The position numbers were made by a program, and so were the translations under genes. From a virus: 64,000 nucleotides of DNA. The stretch covers positions 60,328 through 124,327 of IMG/VR virus record IMGVR_UViG_3300009488_000018; one strand, written 5' to 3'. Positions 1,478 to 46,930 of the stretch are shown piece by piece (the stretch's first letter is position 1; each line of letters starts with the position of its first letter). The notes under the pieces are model-generated. The model was not told the origin of the DNA and did no database searches. It worked only from the letters and a program-made list of their open reading frames with translations.

Positions 1478-3931
1478 ATGGCAATAAAATATCCACCTTT
1501 ACCAGTAACATTTAATGTTGAGAAAGAAGTGGCTTTTTATTATTCGTCAGTTATTTCGCAAATACTAAATTGCAGTTTCAAAGCGAGATTTAATACAGAT
1601 GGTCTTTTTGAATCGTCTGAAATTAAACTCCTTGCCGAATATAAATGTGGTGTTTCACTAACTAAAAAAGGTTTAATTCAATGTGTTGTACAAAATTTAT
1701 TCTATATCAAAAGGATTGAGAAGGCAGGAGAATTATTACCAAATGTTATTTTTATTGGTAATGAAGAAAACTATTGTATCTTTGATTCTTCAAATTTAAA
1801 TGAGTATCTTAAATTAGACGTAAATTGGTTTGAAATATCTCCAAGTCAAGCTTTTATAAAACCACCAGAAGTACTTTATAACGCTATCGAAAAAAGTTTT
1901 ACTGTGCACCTATATTCATTATCTAATATACCAATTTTAGAACAAATTATTAATAATTTTAGGAATAATAATATAGGATTAAAGATGACAGTAAACAATG
2001 ATAATGTTGGAATGTTATTTGAAGAATTTATAACTTCAAATATTGTAGCGCAAAAATTAGAACCGCATGAAGTGGTAGCATTATTTGCTAGCATTCTCTT
2101 TGGTGAATGTTCTGATATTGTGAAAGATGAAAACAAAATAACAACACCCTTGTCAAACAAACAAATAGTAAAAATTTATCGAAAAAATTACGACTCATTT
2201 TTAAAGATTGTAAAAGAAGTTGGTGATATAAAAATAAAAGACGAGATAATGGCTCAATCAGATCGCCTAATCGAAGAAGTTTATCGACGATTCCACGGAG
2301 AATTCTACACACCAAAGATCTGGGTTAATGAAGCTCATAAAATGATTTGTGAAACAATTGACCCACATTGGTATGAAAATTATGTTGTCTGGGATACTTG
2401 TTGTGGTCTTGCAAATCTCACTAGAGATTATACATTTACAGAATTATATATGTCAACGTTACATCAAGAAGATATTGATATCATAAAACAGAGAGGATAT
2501 AATCCAGAGGCTAAAGCAATATTTCAATATGATTTTTTAAATGATGATGTTCTAGCAGATGAAAATGTACTACCAATGGTTCCAAACAATTATATTTCTA
2601 AACTAGAACAACTGGCTCCAGGTTTAATCGAAGCTTTTCAGGAGAACAAGAAGATCTTAATTATTATGAATCCACCATACGGAGCTGCAGGAGGAAGCAA
2701 GATCCTTTCAATTAGAAAAGAAAATATTTCGAACACTAAAATTAAAAATATTATGAAAAATCAAAAGTTAGCTCACGCATCTTTACAACTATTTTGTCAG
2801 TTTTTATTTAGAATTATTGGATTTAAGAAATACTATAACGAAACAAATATAAGTATAGCATCTTTTTCAACACCAATATTTTTAGCTGGTCCTTCATTTA
2901 AGAATTTTAGAAAGTTATACTTAAATGAATTTAGCTACATAAGAAGCATTTTTTTCAGATCAGATGAATTTGATTCTGTTTCTGGAATTTGGGGAATCTT
3001 ATTTAGTCTTTGGAATAGCGGTAAAACAATAATTCAAGACTCCTTTGTAACAACAATGGTTGACAAAGATACTACATTAAACAAAGTACTATACAATACT
3101 GACAATGTGGAACCAGCTACTAGTCACTTAAAAAGAACAGTTCCAGAAAAAAGTTGGATTGAATATCCGAACTTTAGTAGTGGATTGGTAGTTAAAGAGA
3201 CACATAACTTGTTTTTGAAAAATTCAATTGGTACATTTGTTACAGCAAGTAATGATGTGAATCAATCAATTTTTGTTACTGGCGTCCTAAGCGGTGCATC
3301 ATCAATTGGTGGAATTCCTATTACAAAAAACAATTTTTTAGATTTTGTTAGCTTATTTACTGCAAAAACAAGAGCTCCCAGACACTGGAGTACAATGCAT
3401 GACCAATTTTTAGTTCCTAATAAACAAATAGATGGATATCAACAATGGAATTATGATGCTATTGTATATACAATTTTTAAAGAGGCACAAGTATCTACGT
3501 CTGTTCGTAATATATTTTATAAAAATAAGCAATGGAATATCAAAAACGAATTCTTCTGGTTACCGAACCAATTTATGCAAGATTTAGCAAACCAGAACAA
3601 TTTTGAAGAGTTATACAGAGATGCAAATACATTTAATCAAGAAAGATTTGTATATCAAGAACTACAAAAAGTTAACTTAAGTCCAGATGCAAAAGAAGTA
3701 TTAGATAAAACTATTGAGTTAGTAATAAAAATATTTCCCTATAGAAAAAAGTGGCATGATCTACATCCAGATTGGCATTTACAAACTTGGGATGCAGGTT
3801 GGTATCAAACTAAGTTAATATTAAAGAATGAACCAGATTTGAAAAAAGACTTCGATGATTTTAAAGAGCTTTATAAAAAGTTTGAAGACAGAATGAGAGA
3901 AGGAGTGTATAAATTTGGATTTTTGAAGTAA
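1478..3931 (+). CDS. large N6-adenine DNA methyltransferase with possible nuclease domain
   Basis: 817 residues from the ATG with AAGGAG upstream. The SAM-binding motif lies near residue 305 (VVWDTCCGLANLT) and the catalytic NPPYG near residue 397, as in N6-adenine methylases; HGEFYTP near residue 271 resembles the entry segment of type I/IIG methylases. The first 110 residues contain LLAEYK, then a QCVVQNLFYI segment and a hydrophobic strand, the pattern of a PD-(D/E)xK nuclease core. The long C-terminal half could recognise the target. I infer a type IIG-like or self-protecting methylase; nuclease activity is unproven. An EVE-like/nuclease gene follows 450 bases downstream. Confidence 0.85.
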   Translation: MAIKYPPLPVTFNVEKEVAFYYSSVISQILNCSFKARFNTDGLFESSEIKLLAEYKCGVSLTKKGLIQCVVQNLFYIKRIEKAGELLPNVIFIGNEENYCIFDSSNLNEYLKLDVNWFEISPSQAFIKPPEVLYNAIEKSFTVHLYSLSNIPILEQIINNFRNNNIGLKMTVNNDNVGMLFEEFITSNIVAQKLEPHEVVALFASILFGECSDIVKDENKITTPLSNKQIVKIYRKNYDSFLKIVKEVGDIKIKDEIMAQSDRLIEEVYRRFHGEFYTPKIWVNEAHKMICETIDPHWYENYVVWDTCCGLANLTRDYTFTELYMSTLHQEDIDIIKQRGYNPEAKAIFQYDFLNDDVLADENVLPMVPNNYISKLEQLAPGLIEAFQENKKILIIMNPPYGAAGGSKILSIRKENISNTKIKNIMKNQKLAHASLQLFCQFLFRIIGFKKYYNETNISIASFSTPIFLAGPSFKNFRKLYLNEFSYIRSIFFRSDEFDSVSGIWGILFSLWNSGKTIIQDSFVTTMVDKDTTLNKVLYNTDNVEPATSHLKRTVPEKSWIEYPNFSSGLVVKETHNLFLKNSIGTFVTASNDVNQSIFVTGVLSGASSIGGIPITKNNFLDFVSLFTAKTRAPRHWSTMHDQFLVPNKQIDGYQQWNYDAIVYTIFKEAQVSTSVRNIFYKNKQWNIKNEFFWLPNQFMQDLANQNNFEELYRDANTFNQERFVYQELQKVNLSPDAKEVLDKTIELVIKIFPYRKKWHDLHPDWHLQTWDAGWYQTKLILKNEPDLKKDFDDFKELYKKFEDRMREGVYKFGFLK

Positions 3932-3945
3932 TAAAGGAGAATAAA

Positions 3946-4128
3946 ATGAACGAAGAAACAGTAGAACTAACATTTGATGACATTGAACCTTTACAAAAGG
4001 CTTTAAATGAAATGAACCCCAGTTCGGGTGGTCTTGAATATAAAGGTTTCTTTTGGGACTGGAGGATGGCTCAAAATGCTTTAGAAGATTTGAAGGAAAG
4101 GCAAGAACATTTACAAGAGGAAGAGTAA
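3946..4128 (+). CDS. small acidic hypothetical protein
   Basis: 60 residues; ATG behind AAAGGAGAATAAA, 14 bases after the methyltransferase. Acidic and mostly helical, ending in a Glu-rich helix (ERQEHLQEEE). No domain recognised; one base separates it from the next gene, so the two are probably translated together. Confidence 0.65.
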   Translation: MNEETVELTFDDIEPLQKALNEMNPSSGGLEYKGFFWDWRMAQNALEDLKERQEHLQEEE

Positions 4129-4129
4129 A

Positions 4130-4345
4130 ATGAAAAAGATACTAATAATGTTGTTATTCCTTGGTGGATGCGTAACAACTCCAGCAACATATAATCCAGT
4201 AGCAGAAAGACAGTTAGAACGTCACTATGACTCACGAGGAAGATACAGTGGTTATACTCAAATAAAGATATATAAAGATGGAAGTGTTGTTAAAGAACAT
4301 TTTGATAAGAAAGGAAAATACATAGGACGTTCTCGTATAAATTAA
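4130..4345 (+). CDS. small lipoprotein
   Basis: 71 residues. MKKILIMLLFLGGCVTTP is a lipoprotein signal with lipobox LGGC, so Cys14 would be lipidated and the protein anchored in a Gram-negative envelope. The mature part has two repeats of the type YDSRGRYSGYTQ / FDKKGKYIGRSR, reminiscent of short beta-hairpin (MORN-like) units. Function unknown. Confidence 0.75.
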   Translation: MKKILIMLLFLGGCVTTPATYNPVAERQLERHYDSRGRYSGYTQIKIYKDGSVVKEHFDKKGKYIGRSRIN

Positions 4346-4377
4346 ATGAATACTAGAACTTAGAAAGGAGAGTAAGA

Positions 4378-5499
4378 GTGAAATATTTTTATCAAATATA
4401 TAGAATAACAACTTACGAAATTTTTATGAACAGTGACAGAACAATAACTGGAGTTACAATTCGTTCGCAAAATCTATGTGATAAGGTTGAAGTCGGTGAT
4501 AGATTTATATGTTATTTATCAGGTATTAGTAGATGGTTTGGAGTTTTAGAGGTAGAGTCAAAAAGTCACTTAGACAAAGAAAAGAAAATATTCTACGAGA
4601 AAGATCCTTTCGTTATTCACTTTAAAGTGAAACCATTAGTATTGTTAGATATTGAAAACTCAATTCCACGTTCTGACCCGTCTCTCGCTTCTACTTATTT
4701 TTCGTCACATGACAGATCTGTTAATATTAAATTATGGCGATCAATTGGTCCATTAGATCCTTCTGACGGTTCTATTTTAGAGAAAGAACTAACTTTCCAA
4801 TCTTCCTCTAAAAAAGTTTTTCCATTGCAAAAAAATATAGTAGAAAATTGCAGATCATTTGATAGACGAGAACTAGAAAAGAAAGGATATTGTACACTAA
4901 GTGAAAATCAAATAACAACCTCCAAGGAGTTATCTGAGCCAGACAAAGAAGAGAACGAAGAAGATATCAATCAAGGAACTAGAGAATCATTAAAGATTCA
5001 AGCTCTCCTTGCCAAAATTGGAGAGACAATGGGATTCAAAATTTGGATACCAACACAAGACAGAAATAGAGTCATCAAAGAGTGTCAAATTAATGAAGAA
5101 TCTGTTCTGTCTACTTTACCTTTTAATTACAATAATATCACAACAAAAACTATTGAACAAATTGATATTATCTGGGTTCAAAAAAGTTATATCGTTCGAG
5201 CTTTTGAAGTAGAAGACACAACTTCAATATACTCTGGTTTATTAAGAATGTCAGATTTAATTTCTTTACAGTCAAACTTAGATATTAAATTACATATTGT
5301 TGCTCCAGATTCTCGAAGAGAAAAAGTTCTCGGCGAGATTAAACGACCTACTTTCGACAGTCTTCCAAAGCCACTACCTGATATATGTAGTTATTTATCA
5401 TATGACAGTATCGTCGAGATATCTAGAAATAGACATCTTAATAGACTAAAAGATAGTATCTTAGACGATTATGAAGAAATAGTAGATCCATTACTATAA
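4378..5499 (+). CDS. EVE-like domain fused to a PD-(D/E)xK nuclease-like domain
   Basis: 373 residues with a GTG start behind GAAAGGAGAG. The N-terminal third (VGDRFICYLSGISRWFGVLEV, split by a loop) looks like an EVE/PUA-type fold, a module that reads modified bases. After an acidic linker, the C-terminal third has an IDIIW strand near residue 261 and FEVEDTTSIYSGLLRMSDL near 275, the D...ExE pattern seen in restriction-type endonucleases. Known EVE-nuclease fusions cut modified DNA; that role here is inference. The nearby methyltransferase makes a restriction or anti-competitor function plausible. Confidence 0.7.
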   Translation: MKYFYQIYRITTYEIFMNSDRTITGVTIRSQNLCDKVEVGDRFICYLSGISRWFGVLEVESKSHLDKEKKIFYEKDPFVIHFKVKPLVLLDIENSIPRSDPSLASTYFSSHDRSVNIKLWRSIGPLDPSDGSILEKELTFQSSSKKVFPLQKNIVENCRSFDRRELEKKGYCTLSENQITTSKELSEPDKEENEEDINQGTRESLKIQALLAKIGETMGFKIWIPTQDRNRVIKECQINEESVLSTLPFNYNNITTKTIEQIDIIWVQKSYIVRAFEVEDTTSIYSGLLRMSDLISLQSNLDIKLHIVAPDSRREKVLGEIKRPTFDSLPKPLPDICSYLSYDSIVEISRNRHLNRLKDSILDDYEEIVDPLL

Positions 5500-8909: not shown

Positions 8910-8952
8910 ATACACTGTAAGGAGTTAATTGGTAGAAAGAGGAGAAGAAAAA

Positions 8953-9058: not shown

Positions 9059-9250
9059 ATGAAAAAGAAAGAAAAAACATATCTTGTAGTACAGTTAACA
9101 GAAACCGACGGTGAAATTGTAGTCAAAAGAATGACAGGAGAAGAAATAAGGTCACTGACTCAGGATAGTTCTGAACAAATAGGTATGACTATTATTGAAG
9201 GTAACTTAATAAAAGGACCTGATTCTGTTATAGATCTTAAACATTTATAA
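9059..9250 (+). CDS. small hypothetical protein
   Basis: 63 residues; ATG behind AAGGAGAATGAT. Short beta-rich protein (KTYLVVQLTETDGEIVVKRM) with an acidic second half. TAA abuts tRNA-Thr. No family recognised. Confidence 0.6.
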   Translation: MKKKEKTYLVVQLTETDGEIVVKRMTGEEIRSLTQDSSEQIGMTIIEGNLIKGPDSVIDLKHL

Positions 9251-9324
9251 GCCGGTGTAGCTCAGATGGCCAGAGCTGGGGTTTTGTAAACCTCATGCCG
9301 GGGGTTCGACTCCCTCCGCCGGCC
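9251..9324 (+). tRNA. tRNA-Thr (TGT)
   Basis: Acceptor GCCGGTG/CGCCGGC with one G-T pair, anticodon loop TTTGTAA (TGT), T arm with TTCGACT. A second, different Thr(TGT) lies on the minus strand near 23.4 kb. Confidence 0.9.
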
Positions 9325-9341
9325 CATTCAAAAGGAGTAAA

Positions 9342-9653
9342 ATGTATAAAGTAACACTTGTGACATTAGAAGGTGGTAAAAATCTACGCACTAAAACAGT
9401 TAAAGGGATAACTAATAAGTTACCCAAAATAAACGAAAGATTTTTCATGGTAAGTAGCGCTTTAGAAAAAGGAAAAAGTATCAGAACAATAGATACGAGT
9501 CCTGTAGAAAGTATTGAATATAGCGACGAAAAGAATACAAGAGTATTTAAAACGAAATATTCTAGATACAAAATTACTCACGAAAAAATAAAAGAGGTGA
9601 ACTATGGACGTACTTTTAATAATATCGTCAATAATAGCAGGACTTGCCACTGA
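9342..9653 (+). CDS. hypothetical protein
   Basis: 103 residues; ATG behind AAAGGAGTAAA. Basic, beta-type protein. Its last 50 bases overlap the next gene in another frame; the C-terminal residues there (NYGRTFNNIVNNSRTCH) are low-complexity and may simply reflect the overlap. Unknown function. Confidence 0.6.
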   Translation: MYKVTLVTLEGGKNLRTKTVKGITNKLPKINERFFMVSSALEKGKSIRTIDTSPVESIEYSDEKNTRVFKTKYSRYKITHEKIKEVNYGRTFNNIVNNSRTCH

Positions 9654-9861
9654 TATTATTATTATAATGTTTTGTTTAATAGTATTAACATCTGTTATAT
9701 GTTACTGGAAAGAAATCGAAACCAAATTTGAGAACAAACGTTATAAAAGAATATTTTGGTTAAGTTTTGTTATCATAGCTACTATTATGATAATAATAAG
9801 CTACTCAATAAAAACACCTGGTGAACATCTATGTAAATTTTTAGTCAGCGCAATAAATTAA
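9604..9861 (+). CDS. two-helix membrane protein
   Basis: 85 residues with two hydrophobic segments (residues 4-30 and 50-68) separated by a charged loop (WKEIETKFENKRYKR). AAAGAGGTGAAC precedes the ATG inside the preceding gene. TAA abuts tRNA-Gln. Confidence 0.65.
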   Translation: MDVLLIISSIIAGLATDIIIIMFCLIVLTSVICYWKEIETKFENKRYKRIFWLSFVIIATIMIIISYSIKTPGEHLCKFLVSAIN

Positions 9862-9934
9862 TCGCGGGTCGATCAGTGGTTTAGGTCACAGGGCTTTGAA
9901 CCCTGCAACGGAGGTTCGAATCCTCTCCCGTGAG
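9862..9934 (+). tRNA. tRNA-Gln (TTG)
   Basis: Acceptor TCGCGGG/CCCGTGA, anticodon loop CTTTGAA (TTG), T loop TTCGAAT, discriminator G. The T1-A72 pair is shared with the amber-reading tRNA at 20134. Confidence 0.9.
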
Positions 9935-9942
9935 TAAAAATT

Positions 9943-10017
9943 GGGGGTATGGTCTAGTTGGTCAAGGACGTCTGCCTGTCACGCAGAAGGTCTCGGGTTC
10001 AAATCCCGATACTCCCG
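9943..10017 (+). tRNA. tRNA-Asp (GTC)
   Basis: Acceptor GGGGGTA/TACTCCC, anticodon loop CTGTCAC (GTC), T loop TTCAAAT, discriminator G. Confidence 0.93.
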
Positions 10018-20133: not shown

Positions 20134-20208
20134 TCCCCTGTAGCTTAGTCAGGTCAAAAGCAGAGGTCTCTAAAACCTTGGACGTGGGTTCAAATCCCAC
20201 CAGGGGAT
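20134..20208 (+). tRNA. tRNA with anticodon CTA (amber suppressor)
   Basis: Full cloverleaf: acceptor TCCCCTG/CAGGGGA, D stem GCTT/AAGC, anticodon arm GAGGT-CTCTAAA-ACCTT with T33 and anticodon CTA at 20170-20172, T arm GTGGG-TTCAAAT-CCCAC. CTA reads UAG. T1-A72 is shared with the tRNA-Gln here, but discriminator is T, so the amino acid is not certain. Confidence 0.9.
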
Positions 20209-27339: not shown

Positions 27340-27906
27340 CTATTTCCGGTCTGGTTTTTCGGCATACCCACTAAATAATTCTGACTCATTTATTTTAAAA
27401 ACTTTCTCTAATATTTCAAAAACGACCTCTTTCGACATTCCTAAAAGTGGCGCTTCAAGCTTCATTGGCTTACTTCCATTAATCTGAAGGAGTTCATTTA
27501 CTTTTACAACCCATTCTTGAGTACAATCTGGAAAAAGATCAAGCCGGTCTGAAAAATTTGCTCCGTACCAAATTGTATCAATTTCCCAACTTTCAGCAAT
27601 TGAACAAGCTAATGAAACAAATAATAAATTTCTAGAAGGAACATACCACTCTGATACATCTTCATATCTTCCTCTTTGATTATCACCAGTTAAAGCACTA
27701 TCTACAGACAAATCTTTAACAGTAACTATAGTCCCTACAACTCCAAGTTTTTCTAATTGGTTCTTAGCTACTTCTAACTCTTTGCGATGTTTTTGTCCAT
27801 AATTAACCAATAAACAATAAACATTCTTTTTCATCTTTAGTGCTAATTCTAACATTAACCTACTATCAGCACCACCACTATAAAGAATTAATATATCCTT
27901 ACTCAT
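27340..27906 (-). CDS. queC: QueC-like 7-cyano-7-deazaguanine synthase
   Basis: 188 residues. SGGADS PP-loop at residues 9-14, NYGQKHRKE, the YVPSRNLLF and IWYGANFSD segments are hallmarks of QueC, which makes preQ0 from carboxydeazaguanine. It is shorter than the usual ~220 residues and lacks the C-terminal CGxCxxC zinc site; a zinc-ribbon ORF follows in frame after the TAG. In phages preQ0 pathways serve tRNA or DNA base modification. Confidence 0.85.
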   Translation of the reverse strand: MSKDILILYSGGADSRLMLELALKMKKNVYCLLVNYGQKHRKELEVAKNQLEKLGVVGTIVTVKDLSVDSALTGDNQRGRYEDVSEWYVPSRNLLFVSLACSIAESWEIDTIWYGANFSDRLDLFPDCTQEWVVKVNELLQINGSKPMKLEAPLLGMSKEVVFEILEKVFKINESELFSGYAEKPDRK

Positions 27907-34706: not shown

Positions 34707-35582
34707 TTAATAGTCAGTTGTAATTGTTAAATGAAACGGGTTAGAACATTCTTTACGTCGTAACCAAAGCCATGAATCAATATCGGAAACTGTCCAACCA
34801 ACCAATATAGAAAGCAGTTTACTAACAATAATTGTCGCAGCTCTAATCTCACATTCTTCTAACGAGTGTTTTGGAATTAAAACATGATTACCAATCTTAT
34901 TCTTCAAGTCTTCAGAATATATAATACATTTGTAATGTTCTAACATCTTTGGAACTTGATAATCTGCTGGGATTGGTAAAGACTGAATTGATTCTGGATA
35001 CCAACCAAACCTTCTATTTAATTGAATAAAAAACAATGAAGCACGTTTTAGAAACATATCAGAAGCATAACCTGGAATTGTCCTAACAAGTGTTTCAAAA
35101 GGTTTATAAACAAACTCCTGGTCTTTAAGGATTTCTCGGATAACATCTGTTGAACTATCAGCAGCTTCAAGAAGATGTTTAGCCCTCTCTTCTAAAAGAG
35201 GAAATCTATATTCTGATAACAAACAAACATATTCGTCAATTACCTCTGTATCGGGAGTCTTTTCAGGAAACTTTTCGAAAGTTTCTTCTAATAATTTATA
35301 CATCATATTTGAATCTGAACCACTCGGTCTAATATTATATTTCCCGTACCAATAACAATAGTTTATTGAATTCCCCAACAACTCCATAAAAACTAACTTC
35401 TTAACTGCTTTGGGTTCAAGTTCAAGTGGGTCAACTTCTGTTCCAAAACCAAACTTATTAACTCCAGTATCTTTCATCACTTGAGCAACTTCAGGTATTG
35501 TATCATAATCAATTGTTACATGTTTTGGATCTTTTATAAACTCTTTCGAAATTTCAAATACTGAATTAATGATACTCATCAT
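34707..35582 (-). CDS. queuosine-salvage (DUF2419/Qng1)-like glycosylase
   Basis: 291 residues. LLGNSINYCYWYG, PLLEERAKHLLEAA, ADYQVPKMLEHYKCIIYS and SLEECEIRAATII match, in order, the conserved blocks of the DUF2419 family; its characterised members free queuine from queuosine 5'-phosphate. A role in 7-deazaguanine metabolism fits the QueC-like gene 7 kb away. Whether the phage version acts on nucleotides, tRNA or DNA bases is unknown. Confidence 0.7.
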   Translation of the reverse strand: MMSIINSVFEISKEFIKDPKHVTIDYDTIPEVAQVMKDTGVNKFGFGTEVDPLELEPKAVKKLVFMELLGNSINYCYWYGKYNIRPSGSDSNMMYKLLEETFEKFPEKTPDTEVIDEYVCLLSEYRFPLLEERAKHLLEAADSSTDVIREILKDQEFVYKPFETLVRTIPGYASDMFLKRASLFFIQLNRRFGWYPESIQSLPIPADYQVPKMLEHYKCIIYSEDLKNKIGNHVLIPKHSLEECEIRAATIIVSKLLSILVGWTVSDIDSWLWLRRKECSNPFHLTITTDY

Positions 35583-46495: not shown

Positions 46496-46930
46496 TTATT
46501 CCTTATTGTATTTTCTAACTTCCATTAATATTCTCCCTAACCAGTTCTCACCTTTTCCTCTGTATATTCCCCAAAAATCATCTCTCCTATTATTGCCTTC
46601 TTCTAATACTTCATCGCCAGTTAAGATTAGCTTGTCCATTAAGTACCGGTTTTGTTCAAATTTACATGTAACTACGTGTCTCATAACACCTACTCTAATA
46701 CCTTTCCAACTCGATCGAATCTTTATTTCCCTACCTCTCCTTCTCGCTTTACCCGGAGTCGAAGCTTCCTGAATATACTTTCTATCTTCTTCATTAGTAG
46801 CTTTCATAGCTTGATATGCATGTTCAGCGCTTTTGTAAACTATACCATAAACTTTTACATTACATAAATAAAAGTTTGAAAGGAATCGATATCTTCCTTG
46901 AAATTCTCTTACAGTCATTCTTCCACTCAT
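46496..46930 (-). CDS. NADAR family (YbiA-like) protein
   Basis: 144 residues. REFQGRYRFLSNFY, YKSAEHAYQAMKA, GRRGREIKIRSSW and DDFWGIYRGKGENWLGRIL define the NADAR fold. Family members act on ADP-ribosylated guanine or riboflavin intermediates; phage copies can undo ADP-ribosylation defences. Overlaps the next minus gene by ATGA. Confidence 0.85.
   Translation of the reverse strand: MSGRMTVREFQGRYRFLSNFYLCNVKVYGIVYKSAEHAYQAMKATNEEDRKYIQEASTPGKARRRGREIKIRSSWKGIRVGVMRHVVTCKFEQNRYLMDKLILTGDEVLEEGNNRRDDFWGIYRGKGENWLGRILMEVRKYNKE

What the first reader, a model, noticed from the sequence alone, without database searches (positions are those of the whole stretch)
1478..5499. Methyltransferase with nuclease-like front and an EVE-nuclease neighbour
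The 817-residue methylase has an N-terminal ExK pattern, and an EVE-like/PD-(D/E)xK protein lies 450 bases away. Together they could form a restriction system attacking competing or modified DNA while protecting the phage.
Basis: partly seen in the sequence, partly recalled or inferred. Interest (0 to 1): 0.65.

Follow-up and report, generated by a model that had tools for sequence, protein, structure and literature searches.

The report
Phage restriction enzyme with swappable targeting
A large uncultured virus record carries one gene that looks like a complete cut-and-protect DNA enzyme and, nearby, a second predicted DNA-cutting enzyme for chemically marked DNA; relatives of the first are common in other large phages, where near-identical phages carry completely different DNA-targeting segments.

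Summary
In detail: 1478-3931 encodes an intact 817-aa protein and 4378-5499 an intact 373-aa protein, 446 bases apart. The first is a three-part Type IIG-like restriction-modification enzyme: N-terminal PD-(D/E)XK nuclease (D41, E54-x-K56, Q72), gamma-type adenine methyltransferase (GEFYTP, NPPY) and C-terminal target-recognition region. E54, K56 and Q72 are identical in 36 of 36 relatives; the best structural matches are the Type IIG enzymes DrdV and BpuSI. The second is an EVE domain plus a D-E-x-E nuclease domain, a predicted modification-dependent (Type IV-like) endonuclease with full-length relatives in dozens of bacterial species. One joint system is not supported: they were not found together elsewhere, and each family stands alone. 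The methyltransferase family has no Pfam, NCBIfam or PADLOC model above cut-off and no match among 50,697 GenBank phage records, yet 40 IMG/VR loci carry it. In one clade, phages sharing 73-98% of the N-terminal part and 76-100% of the C-terminal part differ almost completely in a cassette running from NPPY through the recognition domain; fused and split (RM + S) gene forms both occur there. Cleavage, methylation and targets are inferred, not shown.

The parts
1478..3931 (+). P0001, 817-aa Type IIG-like restriction-modification enzyme (nuclease + gamma N6-adenine methyltransferase + target recognition)
1520..1972 (+). N-terminal PD-(D/E)XK nuclease domain, residues ~15-165; E15, D41, E54-Y-K56, Q72
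   Evidence: alignment; predicted a-b-b-a-b (H15-30, E42-45, E50-55, H63-82, E90-94)
2285..3013 (+). methyltransferase core, residues ~270-512: GEFYTP (274-279), motif I WDTCCGLANL, motif IV NPPY (398-401)
2669..3547 (+). segment equivalent to the exchangeable cassette of relatives (residues ~398-690); contains the position (~512-535) where relatives are split into RM and S genes. Exchange is not shown for this phage itself
3548..3928 (+). conserved C-terminal helices, residues ~691-817
3946..4128 (+). small gene of unknown function, 60 aa, between the two
4130..4345 (+). small lipoprotein-like gene, 71 aa, between the two
4378..5499 (+). P0002, 373-aa EVE + PD-(D/E)XK-like (D-E-x-E) predicted modification-dependent endonuclease
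4378..4812 (+). EVE domain, residues 1-145
4957..5487 (+). nuclease domain, residues ~194-370; Q208, D263, E277-V-E279, T282, S286-G287, R290

Best explanation
Two independent DNA-targeting enzymes carried by one large phage. (1) P0001 is a single-chain Type IIG-like restriction-modification enzyme: its recognition region binds a target site, its methyltransferase puts N6-methyladenine on that site in phage DNA, and its N-terminal PD-(D/E)XK nuclease cuts unmethylated DNA near the site. (2) P0002 is a Type IV-like endonuclease: the EVE domain flips out and senses a modified base and the D-E-x-E domain cuts nearby. Together they would cover unmethylated and modified rival DNA (other phages, plasmids, perhaps the host chromosome), but as separate enzymes, not subunits. 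Shown here: gene integrity, domain architecture, conserved active-site residues, predicted folds, and specificity-cassette replacement in phage relatives of P0001. Inferred: methylation, cleavage, sites, the modified base, and the benefit to the phage.
For: Full-length homologues in plasmids and 40 viral loci, single chain or split RM + S. E54, K56, Q72 in 36/36; N398-P-P in 40/40. Models of mean pLDDT 86.8 and 83.6. P0001: DrdV Z 17.8 and BpuSI Z 15.7, aligned from residue 2-3 to ~645, though with rmsd of 12-14 A, so the relative domain placement differs. P0002: EVE proteins PH1033 Z 16.0, VcaM4I Z 12.0; D263, E277, E279 in 86/86 relatives. Specificity exchange: phages L029 and L043 are 94-98% identical in DNA over most of 18 kb, but the protein drops to 40% only in residues ~402-690. 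EVE-PD(D/E)XK proteins are predicted Type IV enzymes (PMC7641849), and Type IIC/IV genes co-localise in prokaryotes (PMC4176335).
Against: No biochemistry. No solved-structure match by sequence to the P0001 nuclease domain; the best match by sequence is to Type I methyltransferase subunits only. The structure hits for P0002 cover only residues 1-147, so its nuclease fold rests on topology and motif. P0002 departs from its family at two near-invariant positions: D280 where 85 of 86 have H, and A104 where W is usual; it could be weakened. No close relative of this phage was found, so exchange cannot be shown for this gene.
Confidence: 0.72

Rival explanations
1. P0001 and P0002 form one two-gene restriction system: the methylase marks the phage and the EVE nuclease cuts the rest or the marked DNA.
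For: Same strand, 446 bases apart, both of low GC (29.5 and 31.5% against 34.8% for the window). Phage contigs L063 and L065 do have a relative of the P0002 nuclease domain (without EVE) directly followed by a Dam-like methyltransferase gene.
Against: No P0002-type gene near 40 further P0001-type viral loci nor in the contig of L003. 80 bacterial P0002-type loci show no recurring methyltransferase partner. P0001 has its own nuclease with an intact active site. Two unrelated small genes lie between. An enzyme that cut m6A made by P0001 would attack its own phage.
Confidence: 0.08
2. P0001 serves in practice only as a protective methyltransferase against host restriction; its nuclease is silent or rarely used.
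For: Most phage R-M genes are solitary methyltransferases (PMC4176335). Changing specificity cassettes would also help to match changing host enzymes.
Against: E54, K56, Q72 kept in 36/36 relatives, including 30 or so phage copies; a silent nuclease should decay.
Confidence: 0.17
3. The nucleases digest host DNA for nucleotides or shut down the host, rather than fight rivals.
For: Chromosomal DNA would lack the phage's methylation; the record carries nucleotide-metabolism genes such as a dCMP-deaminase-like gene.
Against: A sequence-specific enzyme with frequently replaced specificity is an odd tool for bulk digestion; P0002 would cut host DNA only if it bears the sensed base.
Confidence: 0.15

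Closest known systems
Type IIG (IIC) restriction-modification enzymes: DrdV (7lo5), BpuSI (3s1s), Eco57I, MmeI
   Same: N-terminal PD-(D/E)XK domain, gamma N6-adenine methyltransferase, C-terminal recognition domain in one chain; best structural matches (definition in PMC3874165)
   Different: 817 aa, shorter than the 997 aa of Eco57I; no sequence-level family match; found in large phages and small plasmids
Type IIB RM + S enzymes: BcgI, BsaXI
   Same: In several phage relatives the gene is split into a ~500-aa RM gene and a ~300-aa S gene; BsaXI is among the structure hits
   Different: In the window the chain is fused; the S part aligns to one recognition region, whereas Type IIB S subunits have a tandemly repeated organisation; stoichiometry unknown
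EVE-PD(D/E)XK predicted Type IV endonucleases (Bell, Wolf and Koonin 2020, PMC7641849)
   Same: EVE sensor fused to a PD-(D/E)XK-type nuclease
   Different: Catalytic motif reads D-E-x-E rather than D-E-x-K; carried by a phage; H280 replaced by D
VcaM4I (EVE-HNH, PMC7897488) and HHPV4I (archaeal virus, SRA-wH-HNH, PMC10101028)
   Same: Modification-sensing domain plus nuclease; HHPV4I is a viral modification-dependent enzyme
   Different: Different nuclease folds; HHPV4I has no EVE domain
Specificity change by domain movement or TRD exchange in Helicobacter pylori and in Type I hsdS genes (PMC3077401, PMC3983042)
   Same: Recognition domains replaced in a conserved framework
   Different: Here between phages, and the exchanged block starts inside the methyltransferase at NPPY and spans the M/S junction

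Membership tests
Type IIG (IIC) R-M enzyme | gamma-class N6-adenine methyltransferase (motif I before NPPY, recognition domain C-terminal) | tested here: met
   motifs; structure hits M.TaqI, M.BseCI, CamA, HsdM
Type IIG (IIC) R-M enzyme | N-terminal PD-(D/E)XK nuclease domain in the same chain, with kept catalytic residues | tested here: met
   E54/K56/Q72 36 of 36; b-strand pair and helices in the model; DrdV and BpuSI aligned from residue 2-3
Type IIG (IIC) R-M enzyme | cleaves at a fixed distance from its site and methylates the site | not testable with these tools
   needs enzyme assay or methylome
Type IIB (BcgI-like) RM + S enzyme | separate RM and S subunits | tested here: not met
   fused in the window; met only in relatives such as L029, L035, L043
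EVE modification-dependent endonuclease (Type IV-like) | EVE domain | tested here: met
   profile E 3e-7 to PH1033; Z 16; single-sequence Pfam EVE hit only 12.8 bits, under the cut-off of 23
EVE modification-dependent endonuclease (Type IV-like) | nuclease domain with kept catalytic residues | tested here: met
   D263, E277, E279 in 86/86; PADLOC REase_II 9e-12; topology. H280 replaced by D in the window protein
EVE modification-dependent endonuclease (Type IV-like) | cleavage requires a modified base | not testable with these tools
   needs assays with modified DNA
P0001 + P0002 as one R-M system | the two genes recur together | tested here: not met
   0 of 40 further viral loci; contig of L003 lacks it; no P0001-type neighbour cluster in 80 bacterial loci. 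One search lacks a positive control

The most novel reading that the evidence does not exclude
A previously unnamed Type IIG family is a common accessory of large phages, which swap its specificity as a cassette running from the NPPY motif across the M/S boundary, so that close relatives carry different restriction specificities and shut each other out of shared hosts; fused (Type IIG) and split (Type IIB-like) forms are interconverted by the cassette that is brought in.
Probability: 0.35. Interest if true: 0.75.

Novelty: new variant of a known kind. Interest (0 to 1): 0.52.

Why it matters
Complete R-M systems were reported as rare in phages: nine in 831 genomes (PMC4176335). A family of self-contained restriction-modification enzymes in many large uncultured phages, with active-site residues kept and targeting replaced between near-identical genomes, would mean that phages use restriction against one another and diversify it. 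The pairs such as L029/L043 make this testable: same phage backbone, different predicted target. The window phage adds a second predicted nuclease, for modified DNA, so both unmarked and marked rivals could be covered.

Tried and rejected
Single-sequence Pfam, PHROGs, NCBIfam, PADLOC and PDB searches of P0001: no meaningful match; relatives were needed. tblastn of both proteins against 50,697 phage records: none. Patterns from P0002 alone in viral contigs: none; the nuclease-domain alignment found five loci. Recurrent partner gene beside the P0001 family: only phage core genes of one clade, e.g. a sigma factor, in 5 of 32 loci. 7-deazaguanine DNA modification as the reason for the EVE enzyme: QueC is present, but no TGT, DpdA or QueD family match in the record, so left open. 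Relatives of the window phage to see the insertion or a cassette change: none found. Recoded stop codons in the window: no sign. Whether the P0002 nuclease domain has a solved counterpart: not settled, since the EVE domain filled the hit list.

Full report
1. What is in the window. The two frames exist as described and are intact, each with a strong ribosome-binding site. They are separated by 446 bases with two small unrelated genes. Both are lower in GC (29.5%, 31.5%) than the window (34.8%), which fits accessory genes. The window is the last 64 kb of a 124,327-base virus record with 18 predicted tRNA genes. No relative was found in the phage collection (region), and two neighbouring genes found no relative in IMG/VR.

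2. P0001. Single-sequence searches returned nothing useful. tblastn against plasmids gave 14 records, 11 of them covering at least 80% of the protein, among them Virgibacillus, Lactobacillus, Ligilactobacillus, Acinetobacter and Fluviibacter, annotated as hypothetical or not annotated. With an alignment of these, IMG/VR gave 40 loci, on contigs of up to 380 kb. Two of them repeat earlier or near-identical contigs, so the number of independent lineages is smaller: seven contigs share one identical protein.

3. Architecture and active sites. The alignment shows an N-terminal region E15...D41...E54-x-K56...Q72, GEFYTP and motif I, NPPY, and a C-terminal recognition region. E54, K56 and Q72 are identical in all 36 sequences that reach this part; D41 is aligned in 26, the other ten belonging to a divergent clade where an aspartate lies a few residues further on. 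An ExK triplet by itself means little, since the protein has nine [E/D]xK triplets. The model has mean pLDDT 86.8. The best matches are DrdV (Z 17.8) and BpuSI (Z 15.7), both Type IIG, aligned from residue 2-3 to about 645; rmsd is 12-14 A, so domains match but their relative placement does not. M.TaqI, M.BseCI, CamA, BsaXI, MmeI and Type I HsdM follow. This meets the published definition of Type IIG enzymes, gamma methyltransferases with an N-terminal cleavage domain (PMC3874165).

4. Fused and split forms. In L003, L029, L035 and its copies, L043, L044, L046, L048 and L050 the same protein is two genes, broken at the position of residues ~512-535 of P0001. The second gene starts with its own ATG after a stop, mostly in another frame, so this is not readthrough. 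Tree reconstruction needs at least two changes between states; L003 lies apart from the others.

5. Specificity cassette. Within one clade (L028, L029, L031, L033, L035, L043, L044, L046, L050), pairs share 73-98% of residues 23-395 and 76-100% of residues 700-817, but only 32-51% of residues 402-690. Excluded from the upper range of the last figure are identical copies (L035/L036). The clearest pair is L029/L043: 94-98% DNA identity over most of 18 kb, but no DNA match between about 9122 and 9972 of the gene; the left edge falls at the NPPY codons. The cassette includes the place where the gene is either fused or split, and both forms occur in this clade, so the state may travel with the cassette; this last step is inference. 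A different clade (L049, L051, L053) shows no such pattern, so exchange is not universal. P0001 itself has no close relative and cannot be tested.

6. P0002. The N-terminal 145 residues are an EVE domain: PH1033 at E 3e-7 by profile, Z 16.0 by structure; VcaM4I Z 12.0; YTH m6A readers Z 12-13. The C-terminal part (194-370) is predicted as a-b-b-b-a-b with D263 before the second and E277-V-E279 at the end of the third strand, the arrangement of PD-(D/E)XK nucleases with ExE in place of ExK; a second glutamate at that place is known from BamHI (my own knowledge). D263, E277 and E279 are kept in 86/86 relatives. P0002 alone has D280 where 85 of 86 have H, and A104 where 90% have W; activity may be altered.

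7. Distribution of P0002. At least 129 bacterial or archaeal genomes encode a relative; the best 80 were kept, most of them full length. Two viral contigs hold the same two-domain protein at 41% identity. Neighbours in bacteria are mixed; Type I R-M genes recur in 6-9 of the loci. EVE-PD(D/E)XK proteins were already predicted as Type IV enzymes (PMC7641849).

8. One system or two. No P0002-type gene lies within 8 kb of the other viral P0001-type genes and none was found in the 331-kb contig of L003. P0001 has its own nuclease, and P0002-type genes have no regular methyltransferase partner. I conclude two separate enzymes. Type IIC and Type IV genes do co-localise in prokaryotes more than expected (PMC4176335), so their being neighbours is not strange. 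The 50-genome search for co-occurrence found nothing but had no positive control.

9. Function. Restriction of rivals is the best reading of a kept nuclease site plus replaced targeting. Pure self-protection would not keep the nuclease; host-DNA digestion would not call for replaced targeting. Complete R-M systems were reported as rare in phages (nine in 831 genomes, PMC4176335). One viral modification-dependent endonuclease, HHPV4I, is on record and was proposed to exclude other viruses (PMC10101028).

10. Verdict. Observation confirmed, interpretation partly supported. The window pair is a new phage occurrence of two known kinds of enzyme; the unnamed family behind P0001 and its cassette exchange among large phages are the interesting part.

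Noticed in passing
L022 (IMG/VR 3300023256_000002, 70.8 kb), 8919-8921: An in-frame TGA stands where relatives have TGG (Trp) in methyltransferase motif I. With TGA read as Trp the longest frames grow from 498 to 897 codons, so this phage probably uses a recoded stop.
   Followed up: partly
L029 and L043, about 9122-9972: Near-identical phages (94-98% DNA) differ completely in this stretch of the restriction-modification genes.
   Followed up: yes
L046 2255-3301, minus strand: A GIY-YIG-like gene lies antisense between the RM and S genes, possibly a homing endonuclease.
   Followed up: no
L029, L043, L050, L044 between RM and S genes: TATATTTG or TACCTTTG stands just before the S gene start, like the -7 element of Bacteroidota promoters; the hosts may be Bacteroidota and S separately transcribed.
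   Followed up: no
L011, L013-L020: Plasmid genes sharing the P0002 nuclease domain, with a different N-terminal part, repeatedly sit beside copper or heavy-metal resistance genes.
   Followed up: no
L063 6281-7896 and L065 7560-9185: A D-E-x-E nuclease gene without EVE is followed at once by a Dam-like methyltransferase gene, a plain R-M-like pair in phage contigs.
   Followed up: no
window 27340-27906 (-) and 34707-35582 (-): QueC and a queuosine-salvage-like protein; no TGT, DpdA or QueD match in the held record, so DNA 7-deazaguanine modification is not established.
   Followed up: partly
window 20134-20208 (+): ARAGORN calls a tRNA with anticodon CTA (labelled Pyl), which would read TAG; long frames show no sign of general TAG recoding.
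   Followed up: partly
window 46496-46930 (-): A NADAR / riboflavin-intermediate N-glycosidase family protein, related to an anti-phage family, next to a radical SAM gene.
   Followed up: no
L029 14523-16897: A phage contig with a phosphoenolpyruvate carboxykinase gene next to a DNA methyltransferase gene.
   Followed up: no
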